The notes under the pieces were generated by a model that ran no database searches, was not told the DNA's origin, and saw nothing but the letters and a program-made list of their open reading frames with translations. A stretch of 64,000 nucleotides of DNA from contig JAENZJ010000017.1 of assembly GCA_016841325.1 (NCBI GenBank), forward strand, positions 1 through 64,000, in the 5' to 3' direction. The stretch is from Thermincola carboxydiphila (lineage in GTDB: Bacteria; Bacillota; Thermincolia; Thermincolales; UBA2595). This document shows, in pieces, positions 3,034 to 28,358 of this stretch; position 1 is the first letter of the stretch, and every line of letters begins with the position of its first letter. Made by a program: the position numbers and the translations under genes.

Positions 3034-3087
3034 TTTCCCCGGTGCAGTCGGTGAACAAATATTGCCTGCAGAATTTATAAGCAAAAA

Positions 3088-3170
3088 TGTGACAAAGGTA
3101 AACCCGTTGAAAGACGGGGACACAAAGCCATGGGTCTAAGGTACTGTTGCTATGACTGCCAGGCTGCCGG
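3088..3170 (+). promoter_or_regulatory. c-di-GMP-I (GEMM-I) riboswitch upstream of a chemoreceptor
   Basis: The GEMM-I layout is recognisable: AAGGTAAA, a hairpin CCCGTT-GAAA-GACGGG (3103-3118) with a GAAA tetraloop, GGACACAAAGCC (consensus GACGCAAAGC, one change), a P3 helix holding the 11-nt tetraloop receptor as TCTAAG (3135-3140) opposite TATGA (3151-3155), then GCCAGGCTGCCGG. The receptor differs from CCUAAG/UAUGG by a compensating C-G to U-A swap. A 17-bp hairpin follows 5 nt later and the chemoreceptor gene starts 86 nt after the aptamer. Ligand binding is inferred from family resemblance; whether it turns expression on or off is not decided. Confidence 0.88.
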
Positions 3171-3174
3171 ATTA

Positions 3175-3255: not shown

Positions 3256-4890
3256 TTGGAAAAACAGATATATAAACTCAATTTTTTGGAAAAACTCGGC
3301 CTCGAGGGTCACGTATTTACCCGCGTGAGTTTTAATCTTAAGTACATATTTCCTGCAGTATATGCTTCTCTATTGATCTTCCTGGTACCTGCGGTACTGT
3401 ACCAGGGTAAATGGAATTCCCTGAGCACAATTCTGCTGGTTATTTCCCTGGGAGGTCTGGCAATTAATGTTGTTATAGGCAGTAAAGTAAAAATCCTGAA
3501 GAATTTTTCCGGTATCCTGCACCCTATATGGGCGTATACAACAATTGTTTTATTTGGGCTGGTTTCAGGGTTAAACATGGTGGACTGGATCCTGGCGGCC
3601 GGTTTTGTTGTTTTTGGCATAATTTATTGGTGGATTCCCAGTGCCGGTATGTCAAATGCTATCCGAGCCATATTAAACGGTATTGTCCAGGCTAATTCAG
3701 GTGATACAGATGCCCGGATCTGCCTCAGGGTTAAAAGAAAAGATGAAATCGGGATGCTGGCAGAAAACTTGAACTCATTCTTTGAAGAAAGGCAGAATTT
3801 TATCAAAATGCTCCAGGAGAATGCGTCACAACTGGCCGAGACGAGTACTGAACTGGCCAAAATTTCTGACAGCAGCTCAGCTGCTTTCAGACAAATTGCG
3901 GCTGCCATTGACCAGGTGGCACAGGGTTCAACCGAGCAGTCAAAGAGTACCAGTGAGGCTGTTGAGGTTATGGGACAGGTGGCCATGTCTATAGAGCAGA
4001 TCGCGACCGGTGCCCAGGAACAGAGTAACAATGTGGTCAAAACCACTGCTCTGGTTGATGAGATGACAGCCAAAATGGACCGGATGGCTGCCGGTATGCA
4101 AACTGTCAGGGAGGTTTCGGAACAGAACGGAGTGCTGGCCCAAAATGGCGGAAAGTCAGTAAATAAAACCGTGGAGGGGATGAACAGGGTCAGGACAGCT
4201 GTCCTGGAGACTTCACAAAACCTGAACCAACTGGGGGAAAGGTCACAAAAGATCGGGGAAATCATCCAGGTAATTGACGATATTGCCGAACAGACCAACC
4301 TCCTGGCGCTGAATGCAGCCATCGAAGCGGCCCGTGCCGGTGAGCACGGTAAGGGCTTTGCTGTGGTGGCAGATGAGGTCAGGAAACTGGCCGAGCGGTC
4401 CGGAAAGGCCACCAAGGAGATTGCTGACCTGATAACAGATATTCAGCAAAGGACCAAGACTGCTGTCGACTCCATGGAAATTGGGACCCGGGAAGCCGCA
4501 GAGGGAGTCGGGCTGGCTGAAGAAGCCGGGCAGTCTTTAAGTGAAATCGTAAATGGGGTTGCTACTGCAGCTGATAATGTAGGCAAAATTACGGATATTA
4601 TTAATGAGATAATCGAGAGCAGCCGCGAGGTTTCCGATGCAGTCAGCAATGTTGCTGCCATAACTGAGGAAAACTCTGCGGCAGCAGAGCAGATATCTGC
4701 TTCCAGTGAACAGGTTAATGCCACCGTACAGAATGTCGCCTCCATATCCCAGGAGAATGCTGCCTCTGTGGAAGAGGTATCGGCATCAACAGAGGAACTG
4801 GCCGGTTCTATTGAAAATATCTCGACATCAGCCAAAGGGCTGACCACGATGGCTGCCCGGATGCAGGAACTGGTAAATCAGTACAGGTAG
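3256..4890 (+). CDS. methyl-accepting chemotaxis protein without an extracytoplasmic sensor domain
   Basis: A 544-residue chemoreceptor. About four hydrophobic helices lie in residues 28-130 with only short loops, so the usual large outside ligand domain is missing. A HAMP-like linker (about 130-185) leads to a long signalling coiled coil whose conserved tip is at about 335-385 ([18 protein letters not shown]). The tip binds CheA/CheW and methylation helices flank it. The TTG start has a GGGAGGG site 7-13 bases upstream. A c-di-GMP riboswitch precedes it, so its amount is probably tied to c-di-GMP. It may sense membrane state, energy or a cytoplasmic signal; the stimulus is unknown. Confidence 0.93.
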
Positions 4891-5770: not shown

Positions 5771-5800
5771 AAAAAAGAGAGCCTAGTAGCTCTCTTTTTT
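5771..5800. terminator. bidirectional terminator between convergent genes
   Basis: AAAAAAGAGAGC, loop CTAGTA, GCTCTCTTTTTT: a 12-bp stem with A- and U-runs on both sides, so it works in both directions. The last codons and stop of the minus-strand LysR gene lie inside it. Confidence 0.9.
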
Positions 5801-6670
5801 AATGTGTGACAAAAAGGCCAGGGCCGCCGGGGAAAGGTGAACTCCTTTGGGGAAAATACAGAGCAGCTGCCTGTTCATTTGCAGTTCAGGAAAACCGGGG
5901 GCACATAAAAGGCCGGTCTGCAGTTCCAGTCCCACGGTGAACCTGGACAGAAAAGTAATCCCCATCCCAGCCATGACGGCCCTTTTTACAGCCTCGGTGT
6001 CGCCCAGGGTGACAACCCTGCCGGGTTTGATATGGACACTTTCCAGAATTGATTCCAGGGCCTTCCTGGTGGCTGAACCCAGTTCCCTTAGAATAAAAAC
6101 CTCATCAGCAAGCAGTTCCGGTTGAAATGCGTCTGTTTTGGCTAAAGGATGGTCCGGGTATACCAAAAAAAGAATCCGGTCCTCAAGGATTGGTTCAATA
6201 CACAGTCCCGGAGGTTCGGCAATACCTGCGATAAAGGCCAGGTCAAAATCCCTGTTGGCAGCTCTGGCGGCAATTTCATCACTGCTGCCCAGTTCCAGGA
6301 AGGCCTCAATGTTGGGGTGCAGCTTTAGAAAAGTGGCCAGTGGTGTGGGCAGTAAATAGCTGCCCATTGTTGTACAGGCCCCAATACTCAGTTTCCCGGT
6401 ATGCAGGCCCTGCAGTTCCTGCAGGGTCCTGTCAGCCTCATCAGCCAGCCGCAGCATCTGTTCAACATATTCAAACAGCCTCCGGCCGGCTTCACTCAGG
6501 TAAACGCCACGGCTGTGCCTGTTAAACAGGCTTATTCCCACTGATTTTTCGAGGGATTCAATCTGGCGGGACAGGGCCGGCTGTGTAATGTGGAGTCTTT
6601 CGGCCCCTTTGCTGAAGCTGCCGGACCTGGCAATTTCATAAAATGCCCTGAGCTGGGATAATTCCATCAT
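5783..6670 (-). CDS. LysR-family transcriptional regulator
   Basis: A 295-residue regulator with an N-terminal winged helix-turn-helix (about 1-60; ITQPALSRQIESLE is the recognition region) and a periplasmic-binding-protein-like effector domain. It is transcribed away from selD, and the 143-bp gap between them holds a 34-bp sequence that recurs upstream of the membrane selenoprotein gene at 11002. This makes it the obvious candidate regulator of both units. The effector could be a sulfur or selenium metabolite by analogy with CysB/CysL-type regulators, but nothing in the sequence proves this. The start is an ATGATG pair preceded by AGGTGG; the first ATG is used here. Confidence 0.92.
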   Translation of the reverse strand: MMELSQLRAFYEIARSGSFSKGAERLHITQPALSRQIESLEKSVGISLFNRHSRGVYLSEAGRRLFEYVEQMLRLADEADRTLQELQGLHTGKLSIGACTTMGSYLLPTPLATFLKLHPNIEAFLELGSSDEIAARAANRDFDLAFIAGIAEPPGLCIEPILEDRILFLVYPDHPLAKTDAFQPELLADEVFILRELGSATRKALESILESVHIKPGRVVTLGDTEAVKRAVMAGMGITFLSRFTVGLELQTGLLCAPGFPELQMNRQLLCIFPKGVHLSPAALAFLSHIKKESY

Positions 6671-6723
6671 GCCACCACCTGAAGAAGTGTTAAGGAGTAT
6701 CAGTATGATATAATTAATATTTA

Positions 6724-6757
6724 TAACTGGTATGATGATTATGCATTTCTATTATAT
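6724..6757. promoter_or_regulatory. putative LysR operator, copy 1 (lysR-selD gap)
   Basis: A 34-bp A/T-rich sequence with the core ATTATGCATTTC flanked by TATGAT and ATTATAT. It matches 30 of 34 positions of 10881-10914. The flanks form an imperfect inverted repeat (ATNAT...ATTAT), the usual shape of LysR-type binding sites (T-N11-A). It is placed correctly for autoregulation of lysR and activation of selD. Confidence 0.7.
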
Positions 6758-6813
6758 CACTACATGTGGTAATATGTAAAATATAAGTTCAGTGAGAAAA
6801 GAGGTTATTTATA

Positions 6814-7857
6814 TTGAAAGAGAAAACTGCTGTCAGGTTGACAAGTTTTTCACCGGGCTCCGGCTGAGCCTGCAAAATAGATCCGGCGGATCTAAAACAG
6901 ATTCTGACCAGTCTCCCCAAAATCGAGGATAAACGCTTTTATACTGAGGACGCTGATGATGCGGCGGTCTTTAAGGTCAGTGAAGACCTGGCAATGGTCC
7001 AGACCGTTGATTTTATCACCCCTGTCTTAAATGACCCCTATTCCTTCGGAGCGGTAGCAGCTGCGAATGCCTTAAGTGATATATATGCCATGGGAGCTGA
7101 ACCGGTTTTTGCTTTAAATATAGTCTGTTTTCCCGTAAAAAGCCTCGCAGTCAGTATCCTTGAAGAAATCCTGCGTGGCGGGGCCGATGTTGCTGCAAAG
7201 GCAGGGGTAACCATCGCCGGGGGGCATTCTGTGGAAGACAATGCGCCCAAATATGGGATGGCTGTTACGGGTACCGTGAATCCCGAAAAATTGTTATTTA
7301 AAAAAGGGGCGCGCCCCGGAGATAAGCTGTACCTGACCAAACCTTTAGGGTCAGGGATTATAACAACAGCCATTGACCGCGATTTAGCCGGGGCAGAGTT
7401 GATAACAAAGGTCTATGACCTGATGGTGGAACTAAACCGCGGCGCCGCCAGGGCTATGCTGGAAGTTGGTGTCAATGCCTGTACCGATGTGAGCGGGTTT
7501 GGCTTCCTGGGCCACCTTTATGAGATGCTTGCTGCAGGCAGGACGGGCGCCCGGATATATACCGGCTCCGTACCGGTCATTGATGCGGTCTGGGATTTGG
7601 TCCGTTCCGGGATAGTACCTGCCGGAACTCATAATAACTACCGTTACCTGGCAGATAAAGTCAGGTCAGATAAAGTACAGTCCGAAACCCGGACAGTCTT
7701 ATGTGATTCCCAGACATCCGGAGGGCTGTTAATTGCAGTATCACCTGAAAAGGCAGCTCAGCTGGAAACATCACTGATTGAAGAAGGGTGCCTGGCAGCG
7801 GCCTGTGTGGGGGAAATCACTGACGGGCCTATGGGTATTATAGAGCTTTGGCCATAA
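6814..7857 (+). CDS. selD: selenophosphate synthase, itself a selenoprotein (Sec18)
   Basis: SelD makes selenophosphate from selenide and ATP for selenocysteine and selenouridine. The reading frame begins at a TTG (6814) behind a GAGG site and passes an in-frame TGA at 6865-6867: residues 15-21 read GSG-U-ACK. This is exactly the active-site position held by Cys17 in the E. coli enzyme (GAGCGCK, from memory), and the conserved Lys follows. The full length is 347 residues, the normal family length. Starting at the ATG at 6994 would lose the catalytic loop. A SECIS-type hairpin follows the UGA by 10 nt. Later family motifs are present (DDAAV, VQTVDF, GGHS, DVSGFG). It is the first gene of a selD-nifS-dsrE unit. 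Confidence 0.95.
6878..6894 (+). promoter_or_regulatory. bacterial SECIS hairpin of selD
   Basis: TAGATCC-GGC-GGATCTA: a 7-bp stem with a GGC loop. The loop begins 17 nt after the UGA at 6865-6867, and G's open the loop, both as expected for bacterial SECIS elements read by SelB. Confidence 0.85.
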
Positions 7858-7914
7858 CCGCATTCTTTTATTACCATAATTTTTAGCACATTTGCTGTTA
7901 TAGGAGGAATTTTG

Positions 7915-9057
7915 GTGACACCTGTATATATGGACTATAATGCAACAACACCCGTTGCTTCTGAGGTTGCCAGTGAAATGCTGCCTTATATTACCGAATA
8001 TTTTGGAAATCCCTCAAGCGGTCATATTTATGGAGCTAAAACCAAAGATGCCGTAATCAGGGGGAGGCAGCAGGTAGCTGATTTGTTAGGCTGTCTGCCT
8101 AAGGAAATTGTCTTTACCAGTGGTGGAAGTGAGGCCGACAATCTTGCCCTTAAGGGAATTGTGTATGCAAACAAAAACCCGAATGGGCACATTATTACCT
8201 CTCAAATTGAACATCCGGCCATTTTAAATACATGTAAAAGTTTAGAGCAACAAGGGTATCAGGTAACTTATCTTCCGGTTGACCATACAGGTACGATAAA
8301 TCCTGAGGATGTAAGAAAAGCGGTGACAAAGGACACTGTTCTGATAACAATAATGCACGCAAACAATGAAGTGGGTACCATTCAATCACTTTCCCAAATA
8401 GGGGAAATCGCCCGGGAGCAGAACATTTGTTTTCATACAGATGCAGCGCAGTCGGTTGGCAAAATTCCCACTAGGGTGGATGAGCTGAAGGTTGATTTGC
8501 TGACCCTGGCAGGACACAAGTTTTATGGGCCCAAAGGTATAGGGGCTCTCTACGTCCGTTCCGGAATAAATATTGAACCCCTTATTTGCGGAGCCAGCCA
8601 GGAGGGAGGATTGAGGGCGGGTACAGAAAACGTTGCCGGTATTGTGGGCTTGGGGAAGGCATGTCAACTGGCGGTTCAGGAAATGGAGCAGCGTGTAACG
8701 GAAATGACTGAGCTGGGCAGGTTGTTTTATCAGCTACTGGCAAAAGGGATTCCGGGAGTTGTTCTTAACGGGCATCCTGAAAATAAGCTGCCTAATACTT
8801 GGAATATAAGCTTTCAGGGTATAAATGCGGCAGAATTACTGGCAGTTGTTCCTGAAGTTGCTGCTTCAACAGGCTCAGCATGCCACCATGGGTCCCAAAC
8901 TCTGTCCCCTGTTTTGGCAGCTATGGGTATTGAGAAAGAAAGGGGAATGAGTTCCATCAGGTTTTCGTTGGGATGTGAAACTAATCGTGAACAGGTTCTG
9001 CACGCTGCTGAAATAATTATTGCAAGAGTCAAAAATATTTTAGGGAAGGAGGGATAA
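7915..9057 (+). CDS. NifS-like cysteine desulfurase / possible selenocysteine lyase
   Basis: A 380-residue PLP enzyme of the class-V aminotransferase fold. The PLP lysine is K202 in AGHKFYGPKG and the nucleophile C323 lies in STGSACHHGS. Such enzymes take S from cysteine or Se from selenocysteine as a bound persulfide or perselenide. The GTG at 7915 has AGGAGG 7 nt upstream; a TTG one codon earlier is too close. Lying between selD and a selenoprotein DsrE, it probably feeds Se (or S) to them rather than serving general Fe-S assembly; no iscU is nearby. Substrate choice is inference. Confidence 0.88.
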   Translation: MTPVYMDYNATTPVASEVASEMLPYITEYFGNPSSGHIYGAKTKDAVIRGRQQVADLLGCLPKEIVFTSGGSEADNLALKGIVYANKNPNGHIITSQIEHPAILNTCKSLEQQGYQVTYLPVDHTGTINPEDVRKAVTKDTVLITIMHANNEVGTIQSLSQIGEIAREQNICFHTDAAQSVGKIPTRVDELKVDLLTLAGHKFYGPKGIGALYVRSGINIEPLICGASQEGGLRAGTENVAGIVGLGKACQLAVQEMEQRVTEMTELGRLFYQLLAKGIPGVVLNGHPENKLPNTWNISFQGINAAELLAVVPEVAASTGSACHHGSQTLSPVLAAMGIEKERGMSSIRFSLGCETNREQVLHAAEIIIARVKNILGKEG

Positions 9058-9058
9058 T

Positions 9059-9409
9059 ATGAAGTATCTCTTTATAGTCAATGACGCTCCTTACGGAACA
9101 GAAAAGGCCTACAATGCCCTCAGGCTGGCCATGGTGATGCAAAAAGAAGTTGCCGCCGATATCAGGGTTTTTCTTATGGCTGATGCTGTTGCCAATGCTG
9201 TAACAGGCCAGAATACGCCACAGGGTTTTTATAATGTTGAGCGTATGCTTAAGGGAATCCTGACTAAAGGCGGAAAAGTCAAGTTATGAGGCACATGTAT
9301 GGACGCTCGGGGACTGAGCGAAGTACATATGATTGAAGGAACTGAAAGAAGCAATATGATAGAATTGGCCAACTGGATGGAAGAGGCTGACAAAGTGTTG
9401 ACATTTTAG
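9059..9409 (+). CDS. DsrE-family selenoprotein (Sec77)
   Basis: A 116-residue protein of the DsrE/YchN sulfur-relay fold. A TGA at 9287-9289 appears to stop it at 76 residues, but the frame continues for 39 codons to TAG at 9407, giving KL-U-GTCMDARGL and a C-terminal helix that ends ADKVLTF. In ordinary family members this spot is CGTCMDARG with a conserved Cys, so U77 replaces the active-site cysteine. A SECIS-type hairpin follows the UGA. It starts one base after the NifS-like gene ends, so the two are translationally close. A likely role is to carry selenium or sulfur as a perselenide; DsrE-like selenoproteins have, as I recall, been reported from sequence surveys. Confidence 0.9.
9295..9328 (+). 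promoter_or_regulatory. bacterial SECIS hairpin of the DsrE gene
   Basis: An inner stem CGCTC/GAGCG (9304-9308 with 9316-9320) carries the loop GGGGACT, and an outer stem ATGTA/TACAT (9295-9299 with 9324-9328) extends it. The loop starts 20 nt after the UGA and opens with G's. Confidence 0.82.
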
Positions 9410-9438
9410 CCATGATTATTGACCAAACATCTGTTTTT

Positions 9439-9463
9439 TACCGGAGGCTACAGGCCTCCGGTA
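9439..9463 (+). terminator. intergenic hairpin, possible attenuator
   Basis: TACCGGAGGC, loop TACAG, GCCTCCGGTA: a perfect 10-bp stem followed by AATTTTAAGG. It could be a weak terminator between the dsrE selenoprotein gene and the flavoprotein gene, or an mRNA-stability element. Confidence 0.65.
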
Positions 9464-9484
9464 AATTTTAAGGAGGCAGGAAGT

Positions 9485-10864
9485 ATGGCATACAAAACTG
9501 TCATCCTGGGTGGAGGCCCGGGAGGGTATGTGGCGGCCATCAGGGCTGCACAGCTGGGGGCAAAGGTCCTGGTGGTAGAAAAAGACCGGTTGGGAGGAAC
9601 ATGTCTTAACAGGGGCTGTATACCTACCAAGGCGCTGGTTTCCGGGACTGAACTACTCCGGGCCCTCAACAGGGGGGCGGAATTTGGAATTAATGCCGAT
9701 AACCTGGTGACAGATTTTTCGCGTTTTATGGGGCGCAAGGACGAGGTTGTGCAGAGACTCGTTACCGGTATCAACTATCTGCTTAAAAAGAACAAGGTTG
9801 GGATAGTCAAAGGCACCGGAAAGCTGTTGTCCCCAAACACTGTCCATATTGCCAAAGAGGATGGCAGCAGTGAACAGGTAAAGGCTGAAAACATAATAAT
9901 AGCGACCGGTTCCAGACCGGCTGTCAATCCCTCCTGGGGTTATGACGGGACAACTGTCTTAACCAGTGATGAAATCCTCAACCTGACGGAACAGCCAAAG
10001 AGTCTGCTCATAATCGGCGGAGGAGTCATTGGGTGTGAATTTGCCTGTATTTTTGCCCAACTCGGTACTGAAGTTACCATTGTGGAAATCATGCCTTCAA
10101 TACTGGGTACAATCGATAAGGAAGCGGCCAGGTTAATGCAGACTCTGTTTAAAAAACAGGGAATCAGTCTAAAAACCGGAACCGGAATCCGAAAAGTAAT
10201 CAAAGGTCAGGAAGGCTTAACGGTGACCCTGGAAACCGGGGAGGAAATTAGGGCTGAGAAAATGCTTGTTTCCGTTGGCAGGGCTTTTAATACCGAGGGG
10301 ATAGGTTTGGATACCATTGGTGTGGAGACCGGCCCCAGGGGCGAAATACCTGTTAATTCCCGAATGCAGACCGGTACCGGGAATATCTATGCCATTGGTG
10401 ATGTGACCAATAAAATTCAGCTTGCCCACGTAGCCTCGGCCCAGGGTATAATTGCAGCGGAAAATATTATGGGTAAGGACACTGAAATGGACTATACGGT
10501 GGTGCCCAACTGTATTTTTACTTATCCGGAAGTAGCTTTAGTAGGGATAACCGGCCAAATGGCCACAGAACAGGGAATTACCGTAAAACAAGGCAAATTT
10601 CCTTTTATGGCTTCCGGCAGGGCATTGGCCGCCGGACAGGCAGAAGGATTTGTGAAGATCATCACAGACCCGGTAACTGATAAAATACTAGGGGTTACTA
10701 TTGTCGGATCACATGCCTCAGACCTGATAGCTGAAGCAGCCCTGGCTATGAAACTGGGGGCAACTGCCCAACAACTGGCCGGCACAATCCATGCCCATCC
10801 TACTTTGGCAGAAGCGGTAATGGAAGCAGCCGAGGCTGTCCATGGAATAAGCATTCATATTTAG
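9485..10864 (+). CDS. dihydrolipoyl dehydrogenase-like flavoprotein disulfide reductase
   Basis: A 459-residue pyridine-nucleotide disulfide oxidoreductase. The N-terminal FAD motif is GGGPGGYVAA, the redox pair is C-x4-C in GGTCLNRGCIPTK, the NAD(P) motif is GGGVIGCEFA, and the C-terminal dimer domain carries the catalytic His-Glu region (HAHPTLAEAVMEA). The ATG at 9485 follows AAGGAGG. There are no pyruvate-dehydrogenase or glycine-cleavage genes beside it. Its place between a selenoprotein DsrE and a membrane selenoprotein hints that it reduces a disulfide or selenenyl-sulfide partner rather than serving a 2-oxoacid complex; this is inference. Confidence 0.9.
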   Translation: MAYKTVILGGGPGGYVAAIRAAQLGAKVLVVEKDRLGGTCLNRGCIPTKALVSGTELLRALNRGAEFGINADNLVTDFSRFMGRKDEVVQRLVTGINYLLKKNKVGIVKGTGKLLSPNTVHIAKEDGSSEQVKAENIIIATGSRPAVNPSWGYDGTTVLTSDEILNLTEQPKSLLIIGGGVIGCEFACIFAQLGTEVTIVEIMPSILGTIDKEAARLMQTLFKKQGISLKTGTGIRKVIKGQEGLTVTLETGEEIRAEKMLVSVGRAFNTEGIGLDTIGVETGPRGEIPVNSRMQTGTGNIYAIGDVTNKIQLAHVASAQGIIAAENIMGKDTEMDYTVVPNCIFTYPEVALVGITGQMATEQGITVKQGKFPFMASGRALAAGQAEGFVKIITDPVTDKILGVTIVGSHASDLIAEAALAMKLGATAQQLAGTIHAHPTLAEAVMEAAEAVHGISIHI

Positions 10865-10880
10865 GTATGCTATTTCATCA

Positions 10881-10914
10881 TAACTAATATGATAATTATG
10901 CATTTCAATTATAT
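10881..10914. promoter_or_regulatory. putative LysR operator, copy 2 (upstream of membrane selenoprotein)
   Basis: This sequence matches 6724-6757 at 30 of 34 positions, including the unbroken core ATTATGCATTTC. It lies 88 bp upstream of the ATG at 11002, a usual distance for a LysR activator site, and marks the start of a second transcription unit. Confidence 0.7.
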
Positions 10915-11001
10915 GTAGGGTTATGGTAAGATAGGACCAACTCATAAATGCAGGACTGTAACTACTACCTGCTTAAATACTACAGGAAGGAGAAAGACAC
11001 C

Positions 11002-12126
11002 ATGAAGTTTAACCCATTTAAGTTTCAGGTACCTCTGGCTGCAGGAGGGATCTCATTGATGGCCTTTAATTATCTGCAGTATGCCGTGCCACATGGGGAG
11101 GGCTTAATCAGACTGTCAGATATGCAGTGGGAGAAACTCAGTACGGTTCAAAATTTCTTATATCTTTTTTTGACGGCAATCATGTTGCTTTTTACTGTCA
11201 TCAGCCTGGTTTCCACTGTTATCCTGTTAAAAAGCCTAATAATATGGCTTATTAACAGGGAGGAATATTCCGCATTCATGAACGGGCCCCCGACAATGAG
11301 TATCGGTATTTTTGTCCCCATTGCCTCCATGTCCATGATAGCAAATGTGGTCCTGGCCCCCCTGGCGTTTTTTGTTCCTGAAATATCATCAAATATACAA
11401 TCCTTAATGCTTCCTGGATTGATTTTCTTTGGCTGCCTCTGGTTGATTCTTTTTGCCCTTGAATTCAAGTTTCTAAAAAATTGGCTTACCCGGCCTCTTG
11501 ACGGGACCAAATTAAACTTTGTGTGGCTGCTTGATGTCTTCGCCTTTGGTCTGGTTAACCTGACCGGTACAGGAATAGCATCCATGGCTGCCGGTAAAGA
11601 AGTTTCATCAATAGCTGCCTTTGCATCATTGCTGGCTTTGGGTGTTGGTCTGTTTTTACTGGTTACCAAACTTGGCTACCTGGTTTACCTACAGCTGAAA
11701 TCTGTCAGCCTGCCGCAGGACGCAGTACTTCCCAGCTATTTTATCATGATCCCCATTATCTGTTTGTTTGGTATAAGTCTTCTGAGACTGACCCAGTATT
11801 TACAGATACACTTTAGCTTTAATACAGAAGTGATTTCCTTCCTTTTAATCAATTTTTCATATGTTTGTGCTATTGGCTGGGGTATCTTCAGTGTTTATTT
11901 ACTCAGCAGTTACTTCAGGAAATACTTCTACAGGAGTGAATTTTCCGCAACCCAGTGGGCTATGGTCTGAGCTTTTGTTGGCTCCCAAGTTTTGGGGGTT
12001 TATGTCTACGCAAATTATTTTCCCAATGCAGTTCTTTCCACAGTAAATTATATCAGCGTAATCCTTGCATCTGTCATGTATGCTGTTGTTTTTGGCAAGT
12101 TTTATCAGGCTCATAAGACTAAATAA
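11002..12126 (+). CDS. ten-helix membrane selenoprotein (Sec323), TsoY-like
   Basis: The frame opens at an ATG behind AGGAAGGAG and meets TGA at 11968-11970. Without a break it continues 51 sense codons to TAA at 12124, adding two more hydrophobic helices. Read as Sec, the protein is 374 residues with about ten membrane helices; U323 sits in WAMV-U-AFVGSQ at the start of helix 9. A SECIS-type hairpin follows. The ten-helix plan recalls TehA/SLAC1-type channels, and I recall a family named 'TsoY family (seleno)protein' that fits, but cannot check either. It heads an operon with an HdrE-like and an HdrD-like gene, so a role in membrane redox chemistry or transport of a sulfur/selenium species is plausible. 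Confidence 0.88.
11982..11998 (+). promoter_or_regulatory. bacterial SECIS hairpin of the membrane selenoprotein gene
   Basis: CTCCCAA-GTT-TTGGGGG: a 7-bp stem with one U-G pair. The loop opens with G and starts 19 nt after the UGA at 11968-11970, matching the spacing of the other two SECIS hairpins in this locus. Confidence 0.8.
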
Positions 12127-12171: not shown

Positions 12172-12957
12172 ATGGACTCAGGTGTAGTGCTCTACTACAA
12201 ACCATGGATAATATTCTGGGTAATTCAGACATCAGGAATACTACTATTCATAGTAGGCATGGTCAGTAAATTTTCCTTTTATTTTAGCGGAAAAGGCAGG
12301 TTATTATATAAACAGCCTGACTACAAAGCAATGTTAGCCGCTCTCTTCCGGGAAGTATTGTTCCAAAAACATATCATCCAGAGAAGCCTGTTGCGCTGGT
12401 CTGTTCATATGCTGATCTTTTGGGGGTTTATGGGGCTAATTTCCCTTTCGGCAATAGCGGTGGCTCTGGAGACCATTATCCCGGAAGGTTCCGTAGTCAG
12501 CCAGTATATGCTCCGCGGCCAGGGCCACAATTATTATAAGCTGGCCGGAGACCTTTTCGGATTCATGCTGTTGGCAGGAGTAACGGCTGCCTTCCTCAGG
12601 AGGTTTATTTTCCGGGCAGACCAACTGCATACCGACTCCTCAGATACGACAACCCTGGTTTTTCTGTTATTACTGGTTGTTACCGGCTTCCTTCTGGAAG
12701 CTGTCAGGATAGGGATGTCAGGACCGGCGCCGGGACTGCAGTATTCATTTATCGGATACCGGCTGTCTCAGCTTACGTTATTACAGGGAGAGTGGGCTCG
12801 CACTGCCGCATCTGTGCTGTGGACCCTGCATGCCTTACTTACAGCCGCCCTGCTGGCTTATTTTCCCCACAGCAAGTTTATGCATGTCTTCAGCAGTCCG
12901 GCAGAGATTATATTGAATGCTTCCGAAGAACGGGTAAGGGGTGATCTCTACGTATGA
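12172..12957 (+). CDS. HdrE/NarI-like membrane cytochrome subunit
   Basis: A 261-residue membrane protein with about six hydrophobic helices. Histidines in or near helices (RWSVHMLIFWG, WTLHALLTAAL, FPHSKFMHVF) fit haem b ligation as in the NarI/DsrM/HdrE family, which pass electrons between quinones and a cytoplasmic partner. The ATG follows GGGGTGG. Its end overlaps the start of the HdrD-like gene by four bases (ATGA), so the two subunits are translationally coupled and probably form one complex. The partner membrane selenoprotein is just upstream. Confidence 0.82.
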   Translation: MDSGVVLYYKPWIIFWVIQTSGILLFIVGMVSKFSFYFSGKGRLLYKQPDYKAMLAALFREVLFQKHIIQRSLLRWSVHMLIFWGFMGLISLSAIAVALETIIPEGSVVSQYMLRGQGHNYYKLAGDLFGFMLLAGVTAAFLRRFIFRADQLHTDSSDTTTLVFLLLLVVTGFLLEAVRIGMSGPAPGLQYSFIGYRLSQLTLLQGEWARTAASVLWTLHALLTAALLAYFPHSKFMHVFSSPAEIILNASEERVRGDLYV

Positions 12958-15641: not shown

Positions 15642-16520
15642 ATGAGAAACCTTTGGAAGGGAGCCATCAGTTTCGGCCTGGTGCATGTACCTGTAAAACT
15701 GTACGCGGCAACTGAAAGAAAGGACATTAAATTTAATTACCTCCATGAAAAATGTAAGACACCGGTGCGGTATGAAAAGGTCTGCCCGACATGTGAAACA
15801 GAAGTCCCTATGGAAGAAATAGTCAGGGGTTACGAGTATGAGAAAGGGAAATATGTAATCCTCAAAGATGAAGATTTTGAAAACATTCCCCTGGCGACAG
15901 CAAAAACAGTTGAGATTATAAACTTTGCTGAACTCAGTGAAATAGACCCGGTGTTTTTTGATAAGTCTTATTACCTGGCACCCGGAGACGGTGGCCAAAA
16001 GGCATATGAACTGCTGAAACAGGCTATGGCAGAAACCCAGAAAGTGGCAGTAGCCAAGGTGATTATCAGGTCCAAAGAGTCCCTGGCAGCTCTCAGGGTT
16101 TACCGGGATTTAATTGTTATGGAGACAATGTTTTATCCTGATGAAATCAGGAACACTGAGCTGCTGCCGGAAGTCAATTATAATGTGAAGATAAATGAAA
16201 ATGAGGCTAAAATGGCAGCAAACCTGATAGAGAGTCTTACCGAGCCATTCAATCCGCAAAAATATCATAATGAATACCGGGCTGCGCTAAGTGAACTCAT
16301 TGAATCCCGCATTAGCGGTGAAGAGGTTGAAGTGGCGCCCAGGGTTGAGACAGGCAGGGTTGTTGACCTGATGGAAGCCCTTAAGGCAAGTATCGACCTG
16401 GCCAAGGAAGAAAAGGAACGGGCGGGAATGAAAAAAGGAACAAAGGCAGAGGCAAAGACAGGCAGAAAGGCCGGGACCGGGTCCGGCAAAGGCCGGAAAA
16501 AGGCTAAGACGGTTTCCTGA
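15642..16520 (+). CDS. ku: Ku DNA-end-binding protein (non-homologous end joining)
   Basis: A 292-residue bacterial Ku. It begins MRNLWKGAISFGLVHVPVKLY, the typical N terminus, contains the Ku core with a CxxC pair in KVCPTCE, and ends in a Lys/Arg/Gly-rich tail (from about 262) as in many bacterial homologues. It forms a ring on DNA ends and recruits LigD. The ATG follows GTGAGGTGG. Its stop overlaps the start of the ligase gene by one base, so ku and ligase are co-translated. The 189-bp gap upstream holds a short hairpin ACGACG/CGTCGT (15502-15518) but no gene. Confidence 0.95.
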   Translation: MRNLWKGAISFGLVHVPVKLYAATERKDIKFNYLHEKCKTPVRYEKVCPTCETEVPMEEIVRGYEYEKGKYVILKDEDFENIPLATAKTVEIINFAELSEIDPVFFDKSYYLAPGDGGQKAYELLKQAMAETQKVAVAKVIIRSKESLAALRVYRDLIVMETMFYPDEIRNTELLPEVNYNVKINENEAKMAANLIESLTEPFNPQKYHNEYRAALSELIESRISGEEVEVAPRVETGRVVDLMEALKASIDLAKEEKERAGMKKGTKAEAKTGRKAGTGSGKGRKKAKTVS

Positions 16521-17542
16521 TGAGAAAAATGAATCGTGATCAGGCCATCAAATGGTTCAGGACATTAGACCCCATGCTGGCTGTCCCGGCAGAGCCTTTC
16601 AGTTCCCCGGAATACATTTTTGAGGTTAAATGGGACGGATTCAGGTGTCTGGCTTATCTGGATGATAACACTATACTGCAGAGCCGCAACAGGTTGGAGT
16701 TTGGCCATAAGTTTCCCGAACTGGAAGGAATAACCCGGTTGATCAGGAAACACCCTGCCATTATAGACGGTGAGATTATCATTATGGAAGGTGGCCGGCC
16801 GTCATTTTATGAGCTGCAGAAAAGGGGCTGGACAAAGGATGTCCGTTCTATCGCCAGGGAATCTGCCGTCAAACCGGCCACTTTAGTTGTGTTTGACATC
16901 TTGCTGTCCGGGGATACGGTAGTCACAGGTGTGCCCCTGGCTGAAAGAAAAGAAATTCTCAGGGAAATTGTTGAACCTGATGACCGGATATTTATTTCGG
17001 AAGGTATCCCCGGGAAGGGCCTGGAAGTATATCAGGCATGTATTGAACAGGAACTTGAAGGGGTAGTCGGCAAAAGGGCTGACAGCCTTTACTACCCGGG
17101 CCGGCGTGTTGAATTTTGGAAGAAATTTAAAAAAGCTCATGAGGGGGATTTTGTTATCTGTGGATACCGTCAGACCCATGAGAATACAGAAAGGGTTGAT
17201 TCATTGATCCTTGGGTGTCCGGTGGGAAACGAAATGGTATTTCAGGGAGCTGTGGGGGTTGGGCTGGGCGGTATAACAGGGCAAAAACTCTACCGGGAAC
17301 TCAGGTCATTAATAATTGATACACCCCTTTTTAAAGTGCCACAGAATGTATCCCGTGGACTAAAATGGGTCAGGCCTGTCATCTGCTGTTCTGTGGAATT
17401 CCTGGAACCGGCCAGGGACGGCGGGCTAAGGCATCCCGTTTTCAGAGGGCTGCGCCATGACCTGGACCCCGAAGAATGTACCGGAATTGCCGGGGCTGTT
17501 CCCTCCCATGACCGGGCAGCCGACCCGGATGACACTAACTGA
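16520..17542 (+). CDS. ligD: ATP-dependent DNA ligase domain protein (LigD-LIG)
   Basis: A 340-residue ATP-dependent DNA ligase. The AMP-binding Lys is K37 in FEVKWDGFR; further nucleotidyltransferase motifs are visible (DGEIIIM, EGVVGK, FWKKFK) and an OB-fold completes the C terminus. It seals ends held by Ku. It stops at a TGA (17540-17542). The frame then continues open straight into the polymerase gene, so the two are a split version of the LIG-POL LigD protein known in Firmicutes such as B. subtilis YkoU. Confidence 0.93.
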   Translation: MRKMNRDQAIKWFRTLDPMLAVPAEPFSSPEYIFEVKWDGFRCLAYLDDNTILQSRNRLEFGHKFPELEGITRLIRKHPAIIDGEIIIMEGGRPSFYELQKRGWTKDVRSIARESAVKPATLVVFDILLSGDTVVTGVPLAERKEILREIVEPDDRIFISEGIPGKGLEVYQACIEQELEGVVGKRADSLYYPGRRVEFWKKFKKAHEGDFVICGYRQTHENTERVDSLILGCPVGNEMVFQGAVGVGLGGITGQKLYRELRSLIIDTPLFKVPQNVSRGLKWVRPVICCSVEFLEPARDGGLRHPVFRGLRHDLDPEECTGIAGAVPSHDRAADPDDTN

Positions 17543-17557
17543 TATATTCCGGAGGTA

Positions 17558-18469
17558 ATGAATTTGGACCAAGAGGTTATAATTGAAGGCAAAAGCCTCA
17601 AGCTGACAAATCTGGAAAAACTGATGTGGCCCGGGGATGCAATTAATAAGGCCGGGCTGATAAAATACTATGCCGATATTGCAGATATCCTGCTGCCACA
17701 TTTAAAAGACAGGTTGTTTATCATGAGCCGGTATCCTGACGGGATATATGGAGAGATGTTCTATCAGAAGGACTGCCCTGGTTATGCTCCCCAATGGATC
17801 AGGACATTTCCGGTGGAGTCAGCTGATGTGGGTAAAACTATAAACTATGTTATCTGTAATGACCTGCCAACACTCTTATGGCTCGCCAACCAGGCCTGTA
17901 TTGAAATGCATATCTGGCTGGCAAAGGTGCCAAATTTAAACAACCCTGATATCATGGTCTTTGACCTTGACCCCATGCCCCCGGCCGGATTTAAGGATAC
18001 CCTGGAGGTTGCCCTCCTGGTAAAAGAGGGTCTGGAACAGTTTGGCCTCTGCGGATATCCCAAGACCTCCGGAGCTACGGGAATGCATGTTTTTGTGCCT
18101 ATCAAACCCAATTACACCTACAATGAAGTCCGTGATGCCGTTGAGTTCATCTGCCGGCAGGTCCATACGGTTTTTCCCCGGAAGACTACTATGGAAAGAC
18201 TGGTGGCTGACCGGGGAGGAAAGGTTTATTTGGATTACCTGCAGAATACCCGGGGGAAGACCATGACTTATCAGTACAGCCTGCGTCCAGTCCCCGGGGC
18301 TCCGGTATCAGCTCCGCTGACATGGGACGAAGTCAGGCAGGGAAAGGTACGCCCCGGGCATTTTCACAGTGGCAACATGGTGGACAGAATTAAGGAATAC
18401 GGCGACCTTTATGAAGATTTTCTGAAAACGGGCCAGGACCTGGACAGGCTTGTGTCAATGGTACGTTAA
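17558..18469 (+). CDS. ligD: LigD polymerase/primase domain protein (LigD-POL)
   Basis: A 303-residue archaeo-eukaryotic-primase-type polymerase that fills gaps, often with ribonucleotides, during end joining. The metal-binding acidic pair D136/D138 is in MVFDLDP; HVFVP and YLDYLQN are other family motifs. It lies 15 nt after the ligase stop and in the same frame. GGAGGT sits only 2 nt before the ATG at 17558 but 8 nt before a TTG at 17564, which may be the real start. No phosphoesterase (PE) domain is present, as is usual in Firmicutes. Confidence 0.92.
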   Translation: MNLDQEVIIEGKSLKLTNLEKLMWPGDAINKAGLIKYYADIADILLPHLKDRLFIMSRYPDGIYGEMFYQKDCPGYAPQWIRTFPVESADVGKTINYVICNDLPTLLWLANQACIEMHIWLAKVPNLNNPDIMVFDLDPMPPAGFKDTLEVALLVKEGLEQFGLCGYPKTSGATGMHVFVPIKPNYTYNEVRDAVEFICRQVHTVFPRKTTMERLVADRGGKVYLDYLQNTRGKTMTYQYSLRPVPGAPVSAPLTWDEVRQGKVRPGHFHSGNMVDRIKEYGDLYEDFLKTGQDLDRLVSMVR

Positions 18470-28068: not shown

Positions 28069-28184
28069 AGAGGTTAAAATTGTAGGTTAACATATGGGAA
28101 AAAAATATAAAAATATGTAAGAAAAGGTAGGATTTTTGCAGACAGATGACGAATACACCTCAAAAATACATACCAAACTTTGTT

Positions 28185-28358
28185 CAACGGCAAATTTACC
28201 GAAAGGTAAAGGCGCAAAGCTACGGACCTAGAGGCTTGGTTATGATACCATAATCTTTTTGAGTTATCGGACAAACGGTCATTATATATTTATGATGCTG
28301 GTAACTTCCTTTAGATTATATTACATTTATTAAGAGCTATGGTTGCCGGGCTGCCGAA
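28185..28358 (+). promoter_or_regulatory. c-di-GMP-I (GEMM-I) riboswitch upstream of flgB, with enlarged P3
   Basis: The 5' half is canonical: CGGCAAA, hairpin TTTACC-GAAA-GGTAAA (28195-28210), GGCGCAAAGC (28211-28220), then CCTAGAG (28227-28233), a one-base-expanded form of the CCUAAG tetraloop receptor. The matching 3' half is found about 105 nt later: TATGG (28338-28342) and GCCGGGCTGCCG (28345-28356), nearly identical to GCCAGGCTGCCG in the chemoreceptor riboswitch. The intervening segment would be an insertion at the P3 tip. A terminator follows before flgB. In Clostridioides difficile a GEMM-I switch likewise precedes flgB and turns it off with c-di-GMP. Confidence 0.8.
28238..28260 (+). 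terminator. terminator-like hairpin within the P3 insertion
   Basis: GGTTATG-ATAC-CATAATC, a 7-bp stem with one G-U pair, is followed directly by TTTTT. It lies inside the enlarged P3 arm of the flgB riboswitch and could end transcription before the aptamer is complete. Confidence 0.45.

What the first reader, a model, noticed from the sequence alone, without database searches (positions are those of the whole stretch)
6724..10914. A 34-bp sequence shared by the two selenoprotein transcription units
Positions 6724-6757 and 10881-10914 match at 30 of 34 bases, far above chance in intergenic DNA. One copy is in the divergent lysR-selD gap, the other ahead of the membrane selenoprotein operon. 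It has the inverted-repeat form of a LysR site. It defines a small regulon built around selenium proteins.
Basis: partly seen in the sequence, partly recalled or inferred. Interest (0 to 1): 0.8.

Follow-up and report, generated by a model that had tools for sequence, protein, structure and literature searches.

The report
LysR operators for two selenoprotein operons
Two near-identical DNA stretches are control sites, very likely for a LysR-type switch protein encoded next door, that tie a selenium-activating gene set and a membrane selenoprotein operon into one small regulon; the kind of switch is known, this bacterial operator appears not to have been described.

Summary
In detail: 6724-6757 and 10881-10914 match at 30 of 34 bases; 3000 shuffles of the two gaps reached at most 27. 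The similarity runs on to an extended -10 box at identical spacing, so each copy is an operator overlapping the -35 region of a promoter. No third copy occurs in the 3.43-Mb genome. The site lies in the gap divergent from lysR in 11 of 11 genomes with an ortholog of this LysR. A model built from it finds sites of 36 bits or more in those 11 of 398 phylum genomes and no others. tsoY has its own copy where it stands apart from the selD operon and none where it sits inside it. A published LysR consensus (CTATA-n9-TATAG) scores best at exactly three registers: IR1 near -65, IR3 near -34 and an overlapping weaker IR2, the layout of OccR, OxyR and CynR. Corrections: the 34-mer is not one inverted repeat but one arm of IR1 plus IR2/IR3, and the LysR falls just below the NCBIfam cut-off for LysR_Sec_metab. 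Binding, activation and effector are inferred. Two relatives carry the operator before a tsoY 3' remnant.

The parts
6708..6726 (+). IR1 of copy 1 (ATATA-n9-TATAA), predicted high-affinity LysR recognition site, centre about -65
   Evidence: best register for CTATA-n9-TATAG
6724..6757 (+). 34-bp shared sequence, copy 1 (lysR-selD gap)
   Evidence: 30 of 34 identical to copy 2; conserved in 11 of 11 ortholog gaps
6730..6748 (+). IR2 of copy 1 (weakest repeat, overlaps IR3 and the -35)
   Evidence: third-best register
6739..6757 (+). IR3 of copy 1 (TTATG-n9-TATAT), covers the -35 and part of the spacer, centre about -34
   Evidence: second-best register
6746..6751 (+). -35-like hexamer TTTCTA of the selD promoter
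   Evidence: TTTC invariant in all 14 aligned sites, 18 bp between hexamer and -10
6767..6775 (+). extended -10 (TGGTAATAT) of the selD promoter
   Evidence: TGnTAnnnT invariant in all 14 aligned sites at fixed spacing
10865..10883 (+). IR1 of copy 2 (GTATG-n9-CATAA), begins right after the lpd stop codon
10881..10914 (+). 34-bp shared sequence, copy 2 (ahead of the tsoY operon)
10887..10905 (+). IR2 of copy 2
10896..10914 (+). IR3 of copy 2 (TTATG-n9-TATAT)
10903..10908 (+). -35-like hexamer TTTCAA of the tsoY promoter
10924..10932 (+). extended -10 (TGGTAAGAT) of the tsoY promoter
5783..6670 (-). lysR-type regulator, 295 aa, the proposed binder
   Evidence: PF03466 and PF00126; best NCBIfam hit NF040786 LysR_Sec_metab, 230.2 bits, under its cut-off of 250
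6814..7857 (+). selD, selenophosphate synthetase, Sec (UGA at 6865)
   Evidence: TIGR00476, 368 bits; UGA and hairpin after it
7912..9057 (+). NifS-like cysteine desulfurase (possible Se donor)
   Evidence: TIGR03402, 460 bits, under its cut-off
9059..9409 (+). DsrE-like protein with UGA at 9287
   Evidence: PF02635; UGA and hairpin after it
9485..10864 (+). dihydrolipoyl dehydrogenase (lpd)
   Evidence: TIGR01350 over cut-off
11002..12126 (+). tsoY, membrane selenoprotein, UGA at 11968
   Evidence: NF047643 seleno_TsoY, 560.6 bits, cut-off 250; UGA
12172..12957 (+). NarI/QmoC-like membrane subunit, second gene of the tsoY unit
   Evidence: PF02665
12954..14204 (+). Fe-S / CCG-domain oxidoreductase subunit, third gene of the tsoY unit
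   Evidence: PF02754, PF13183

Best explanation
Each copy is the operator of a LysR-type regulator built onto a promoter with a weak -35 and an extended -10: one drives selD-nifS-dsrE, the other tsoY and its two redox partner genes. The regulator is the product of the divergent lysR. The operator contains IR1 (about -65), IR3 (about -34) and an overlapping weaker IR2 (about -43). By the established LysR sliding-dimer scheme, the tetramer without effector sits on IR1 and IR3 and covers the -35; with effector it moves to IR1 and IR2, frees the promoter, contacts RNA polymerase and switches both units on, so that selenophosphate supply and the selenoproteins are made together. Shown here by sequence: the two sites, the promoter frame, conservation, restriction to genomes with this LysR clade, fit to the LysR architecture. 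Inferred: actual binding, activation rather than repression, and a selenium or sulfur metabolite as effector.
For: 30/34 and the shared -10. Two hits in the genome. Site in the divergent gap, facing the divergent operon, in 11 of 11 genomes with an ortholog of at least 42% identity. Model R1 gives 16 sites of 36 bits or more in 398 genomes, all in those 11; 14 of the 16 built the model. In the genus both promoters carry it in 3 of 3 genomes; in 5 genomes where tsoY lies in the operon behind the lysR gap there is no second site at tsoY; G008 is cut by a contig end. Of 13 weaker model hits (18-30 bits), 6 lie in a gap divergent from some LysR gene, against 1 of 20 still weaker hits (p 0.008). 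LysRs of four of those six group with the ortholog clade (89/69 support). Template CTATA-n9-TATAG: the top three of 85 registers are IR1, IR3, IR2; the second-best value was not reached in 400 column permutations. The two sites rank first and second in a scan of the 64-kb window with that template at the spacing seen in the sites.
Against: No binding or expression data. The sequence is not selenium-specific: G308 has a 26/30 match beside a distant LysR and a methyltransferase-like ORF. Generic palindrome test of the motif alone p 0.42. The spacing used in the scan was taken from the sites themselves. The LysR is below the curated LysR_Sec_metab cut-off. selB lies on another contig and no further site above noise was found, so the Sec decoding genes are not in the regulon. 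The relative with data, HrsM of Methanococcus, is described as a repressor (PMC11097638, passages). Relatedness among the 11 genomes inflates the Fisher and hypergeometric values.
Confidence: 0.82

Rival explanations
1. Same operator and regulator, but LysR mainly represses: a change in selenium supply relieves repression, as HrsM represses Cys isogenes in Methanococcus.
For: IR3 covers the -35; HrsM is reported as a repressor (passages of PMC11097638).
Against: The -35 (TTTCnA) is poor and the IR1 -65 / IR2 layout is that of activators (PMC5002191 sections 15-16). The two modes are not exclusive in this family.
Confidence: 0.2
2. The two copies are a recent promoter duplication, kept by descent, with no shared regulator.
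For: Same spacing through the -10; copies only 4.2 kb apart.
Against: Both copies persist in three genomes; the same columns are invariant in other families whose surrounding DNA has diverged; the site follows the LysR clade.
Confidence: 0.05
3. Another transcription factor, not the neighbouring LysR, binds the site.
For: No binding data exist.
Against: 11 of 11 placement in the lysR gap, absence where selD or tsoY is beside a LysR of another clade (G131 none, G005 8.9 bits), and fit to LysR half-sites.
Confidence: 0.06
4. The element acts as RNA (leader, riboswitch or SECIS-like) in both transcripts.
For: Both units encode selenoproteins.
Against: It lies upstream of the -10 and so is not transcribed from these promoters; no Rfam family there (window 1-30000).
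Confidence: 0.02

Closest known systems
[quoted passage not shown]
   Same: Divergent regulator gene; CTATA-n9-TATAG-like IR1, IR2, IR3; IR1 and IR3 best conserved, IR2 weakest and overlapping IR3; IR1 near -64/-65 and IR3 near -33/-34.
   Different: Targets are selenium genes; a second, separate copy serves another operon; no biochemistry.
LysR_Se subfamily / NF040786 LysR_Sec_metab; HrsM of Methanococcus (PMC5322559, passages; PMC11097638, passages)
   Same: LysR protein beside selD in a selenoprotein-making organism; NF040786 is the best family hit.
   Different: Nine of the 11 orthologs were scored and all nine gave 221.5-245 bits, under the cut-off of 250. LysRs over the cut-off (G131, G013, G018, G029) lie in other clades of the tree and have no model site in their genomes at E 0.005. 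HrsM is archaeal and described as a repressor of Cys isogenes. The passages seen of PMC5322559 contain no operator.
TsoY selenoprotein (NF047643)
   Same: tsoY is over the cut-off.
   Different: It is listed in a review table (PMC13188914, passages); nothing on its regulation was seen.

Membership tests
LysR-type (LTTR) operator | Divergent regulator gene with the site between it and the target | tested here: met
   window copy 1; 11 of 11 ortholog gaps
LysR-type (LTTR) operator | CTATA-n9-TATAG (extended T-n11-A) inverted repeats, IR1 near -65 and IR2/IR3 over the -35 | tested here: met
   top three of 85 registers; p 0.0025 for the best, 0 of 400 for the second. The start is assumed 7 nt after the -10.
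LysR-type (LTTR) operator | Bound by the LysR protein (gel shift, footprint) | not testable with these tools
   needs purified protein
LysR_Sec_metab (NF040786) regulator | Score at or above the curated cut-off of 250 bits | tested here: not met
   window LysR 230.2 bits; eight further orthologs 221.5-245
LysR_Sec_metab (NF040786) regulator | Gene next to Sec/selenophosphate genes in a Sec-decoding genome | tested here: met
   divergent from selD; selB found in the genome, 369 bits
Sliding-dimer LysR activation | Effector-dependent shift from IR1+IR3 to IR1+IR2 with activation | not testable with these tools
   architecture only
Selenium regulon | Expression of both units responds to selenium through this site | not testable with these tools
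   no expression data

The most novel reading that the evidence does not exclude
A LysR clade separate from LysR_Se/HrsM senses selenium status in anaerobic Firmicutes through a dedicated three-repeat operator, coupling selenophosphate supply to the TsoY redox operon; in two relatives (G001, G003) the same operator now drives a short transcript of about 100 nt made of the tsoY 3' end with an invariant AGCTCCTTTC (anti-Shine-Dalgarno-like) before a terminator, that is, a selenium-controlled small RNA born from the tsoY 3' region.
Probability: 0.15. Interest if true: 0.7.

Novelty: new member of a known kind. Interest (0 to 1): 0.48.

Why it matters
How bacteria switch selenium genes at the transcriptional level is little known; the one regulator with data in the papers seen is archaeal HrsM, and how selenium status reaches it is stated to be unknown (PMC11097638). 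Here is a compact, base-resolved operator with two targets, a named candidate binder and clear mutations to test. It gives a possible promoter reporter for selenium status and a first functional link for TsoY, an uncharacterised selenoprotein: predicted co-regulation with selenophosphate synthetase. The six literature searches made in the held open library listed no bacterial operator of this kind; subscription papers were not searched.

Tried and rejected
Generic palindromy of each copy and of the motif: weak and not significant; replaced by the published LysR template, which is the hypothesis-driven test. RNA element: rejected by position. A related site at G005 tsoY was first taken as a member (21 of 30 matches); model R1 gives it only 8.9 bits and its LysR is of another clade, so it was left out of the model. 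It does show the three-repeat layout with another sequence (scores 8, 7, 8), so it is read as a similar operator of another LysR. The orphan loci in G001 and G003 were first read as plain small-RNA genes; the G003 one matches the 3' end of G003 tsoY at 74% over 81 bp and the G001 one that of G008 at 73% over 77 bp, so a decayed tsoY locus is the simpler reading and the small RNA stays a lead.

The seven LysR matches of 36-38% identity served only as a negative comparison. Structure prediction was not used because the question is about DNA.
Full report
OBSERVATION. The two stretches match at 30 of 34 bases, on the same strand, without gaps. Shuffling the two gaps while keeping dinucleotides gave a best 34-mer match of 20.4 on average and 27 at most in 3000 tries. 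The core occurs twice in the 3,426,057-base genome with up to 3 mismatches, both in this window; the reversed control gives none.

PROMOTER FRAME. Aligned without gaps, similarity continues to TGGTAATAT (6767-6775) and TGGTAAGAT (10924-10932). In 14 aligned sites TTTC and TGnTAnnnT are invariant, with 18 bp between the TTTCnA hexamer and the -10. So each copy overlaps the -35 of a promoter with an extended -10. If transcription starts 7 nt after the -10, starts fall near 6782 (selD codon 1 at 6814) and 10939 (tsoY ATG at 11002).

GENES. The unit behind copy 1 is selD (Sec), a NifS-like desulfurase and a DsrE-like protein with an in-frame UGA, followed by lpd; the unit behind copy 2 is tsoY (NF047643, over cut-off), a NarI/QmoC-like membrane protein and an Fe-S/CCG protein. 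selB is present elsewhere in the genome, so UGA decoding is plausible.

CONSERVATION. Of 398 genomes of the phylum, 18 have a LysR match at E 1e-54 or better and 11 of these are 42% identical or more. In 11 of 11 the motif lies in the gap between lysR and the gene divergent from it, on the strand facing away from lysR. selD is the first divergent gene in 10; in G117 a dsrE-nifS-tsoY operon is, and selD lies behind lysR. In G008 only the first codons of selD are on the contig. The other seven genomes (36-38%) gave no model hit at E 0.005.

OPERON STRUCTURE. Nine of the 11 genomes also have TsoY; 13 of 398 have it over the family cut-off (hypergeometric p 6e-14, inflated by relatedness). In G000, G001 and G002 tsoY stands behind lpd and has its own site. 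In G003, G055, G087, G117 and G158 it lies in the operon behind the lysR gap and has no second site there. G008 cannot be judged: tsoY lies at a contig end, close behind the end of an lpd-like ORF by reading. TsoY genomes without a LysR ortholog (G005, G105, G215, G381) have no model site at tsoY above 8.9 bits.

SPECIFICITY. Model R1 (59 columns, 14 sites) searched over 398 genomes at E 0.005 gave 29 matches. The 16 at 36 bits or more are the 14 training sites and two new ones, all in ortholog genomes. The other 13 score 18-30 bits; 6 of 13 lie in a gap divergent from a LysR gene (G308, G073, G130, G299, G012, G234; two of them, G299 and G012, with selD), against 1 of 20 weaker hits taken as control (all 20 non-ortholog rows listed between E 0.118 and 0.296; that one also lies just ahead of a LysR) (p 0.008). 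The model was not told about LysR genes, so this is an independent pointer to the family of the binder. In a tree of 46 LysRs the orthologs form one group (92/81); the LysRs of G012, G299, G073 and G130 stand with them (89/69, an open fork), G073 and G130 on long branches; G308 does not; G234 was not in the tree. LysRs beside selD in G131 and beside tsoY in G005 belong to another clade (100/91) and lack the site. The operator therefore follows the protein clade, not the regulated gene.

ARCHITECTURE. Oliver et al. 2016 (PMC5002191, sections 15 and 16 read) give CTATA-n9-TATAG as the LysR consensus and up to three repeats IR1, IR2, IR3, IR2 being weakest and, in group two, overlapping IR3. Slid over 85 registers along the nine least redundant sites, this template scores best at exactly IR1 (7.44 of 10), IR3 (7.0) and IR2 (5.44); permuting columns reaches the best value with p 0.0025 and the second in 0 of 400. 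With the assumed start, IR1 is centred at -65, IR2 at -43, IR3 at -34; the paper cites -64 and -33 for OccR. A scan of the window with IR1 and IR3 at this spacing plus the -10 ranks the two copies first and second; the spacing came from the sites themselves.

MECHANISM. Inference from the named family: a tetramer on IR1 plus IR3 holds the promoter; effector moves it to IR1 plus IR2 and activates. The effector is unknown; selenophosphate has been suggested for HrsM (PMC5322559 passages).

MEMBERSHIP. The best family of the LysR is NF040786 but at 230.2 of 250 bits; eight further orthologs gave 221.5-245; G002 and G008 were not scored. Proteins over the cut-off in this phylum (G131 260.8, G013 251.4, G018 263.7, G029 291.2) sit in other clades and their genomes lack the operator. 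I therefore do not file it as LysR_Sec_metab, though it may well work like one.

ORPHAN OPERATORS. The two new strong sites (G001:C31, 41.9 bits; G003:C4, 36.5 bits) lie in matching places behind gerABC-like genes (named by reading), followed by about 100 nt, AGCTCCTTTC and a terminator; the 3' part matches the end of tsoY in G003 and G008. A pattern search in 20 genomes gave 11 places; in this family it found the 3' element only at these two loci and behind tsoY of G003 and G008; the other 7 places are in four genomes of other families and were not followed beyond one. Either the tsoY body was lost and the control site kept, or a small RNA arose. In G003 a methionine-gamma-lyase-like gene (440 bits to TIGR01328, under cut-off) lies behind the terminator.

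LITERATURE. Six searches of the held library; passages seen of PMC5322559, PMC13188914, PMC11097638 and PMC9312934, and sections of PMC5002191. No operator of a bacterial selenium LysR was seen there; subscription papers (for example the HrsM papers cited) were not read.

Noticed in passing
L192 9584-9633 (-) (G001:C31) and L193 12100-12156 (-) (G003:C4): Strong copies of the operator drive no gene directly but about 100 nt with a tsoY 3' remnant, invariant AGCTCCTTTC and a terminator: decayed tsoY locus or small RNA.
   Followed up: partly
L193 10745-11920 (-): Methionine gamma-lyase-like PLP enzyme behind the orphan operator and terminator in G003; could serve selenomethionine use.
   Followed up: partly
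window 3087-3171 and 28179-28358 (+): Two c-di-GMP-I riboswitches (Rfam RF01051), the first just ahead of a chemoreceptor-like ORF at 3256.
   Followed up: no
window 7912-9057; L010, L011: The NifS-like desulfurase between selD and dsrE is present in G000 and G003 but missing there in both other genomes of the genus.
   Followed up: no
L208 (G308:C20:96341-96395): A 26-of-30 match to the operator between a distant LysR and a methyltransferase-like ORF: same operator sequence with a non-selenium neighbour.
   Followed up: partly
G215:C97:6866-7996 (L135): TsoY family member with no in-frame UGA, the best score to NF047644 in the phylum sample: a Sec-free form.
   Followed up: no
L175 and L213 (G023, G139): Weak model hit ahead of a NifS-like aminotransferase (31-32%) in two genomes, possibly a selenium or sulfur gene.
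   Followed up: no
window 15642-18469: Ku-like and LigD-like ORFs side by side (non-homologous end joining), named by reading the translations only.
   Followed up: no
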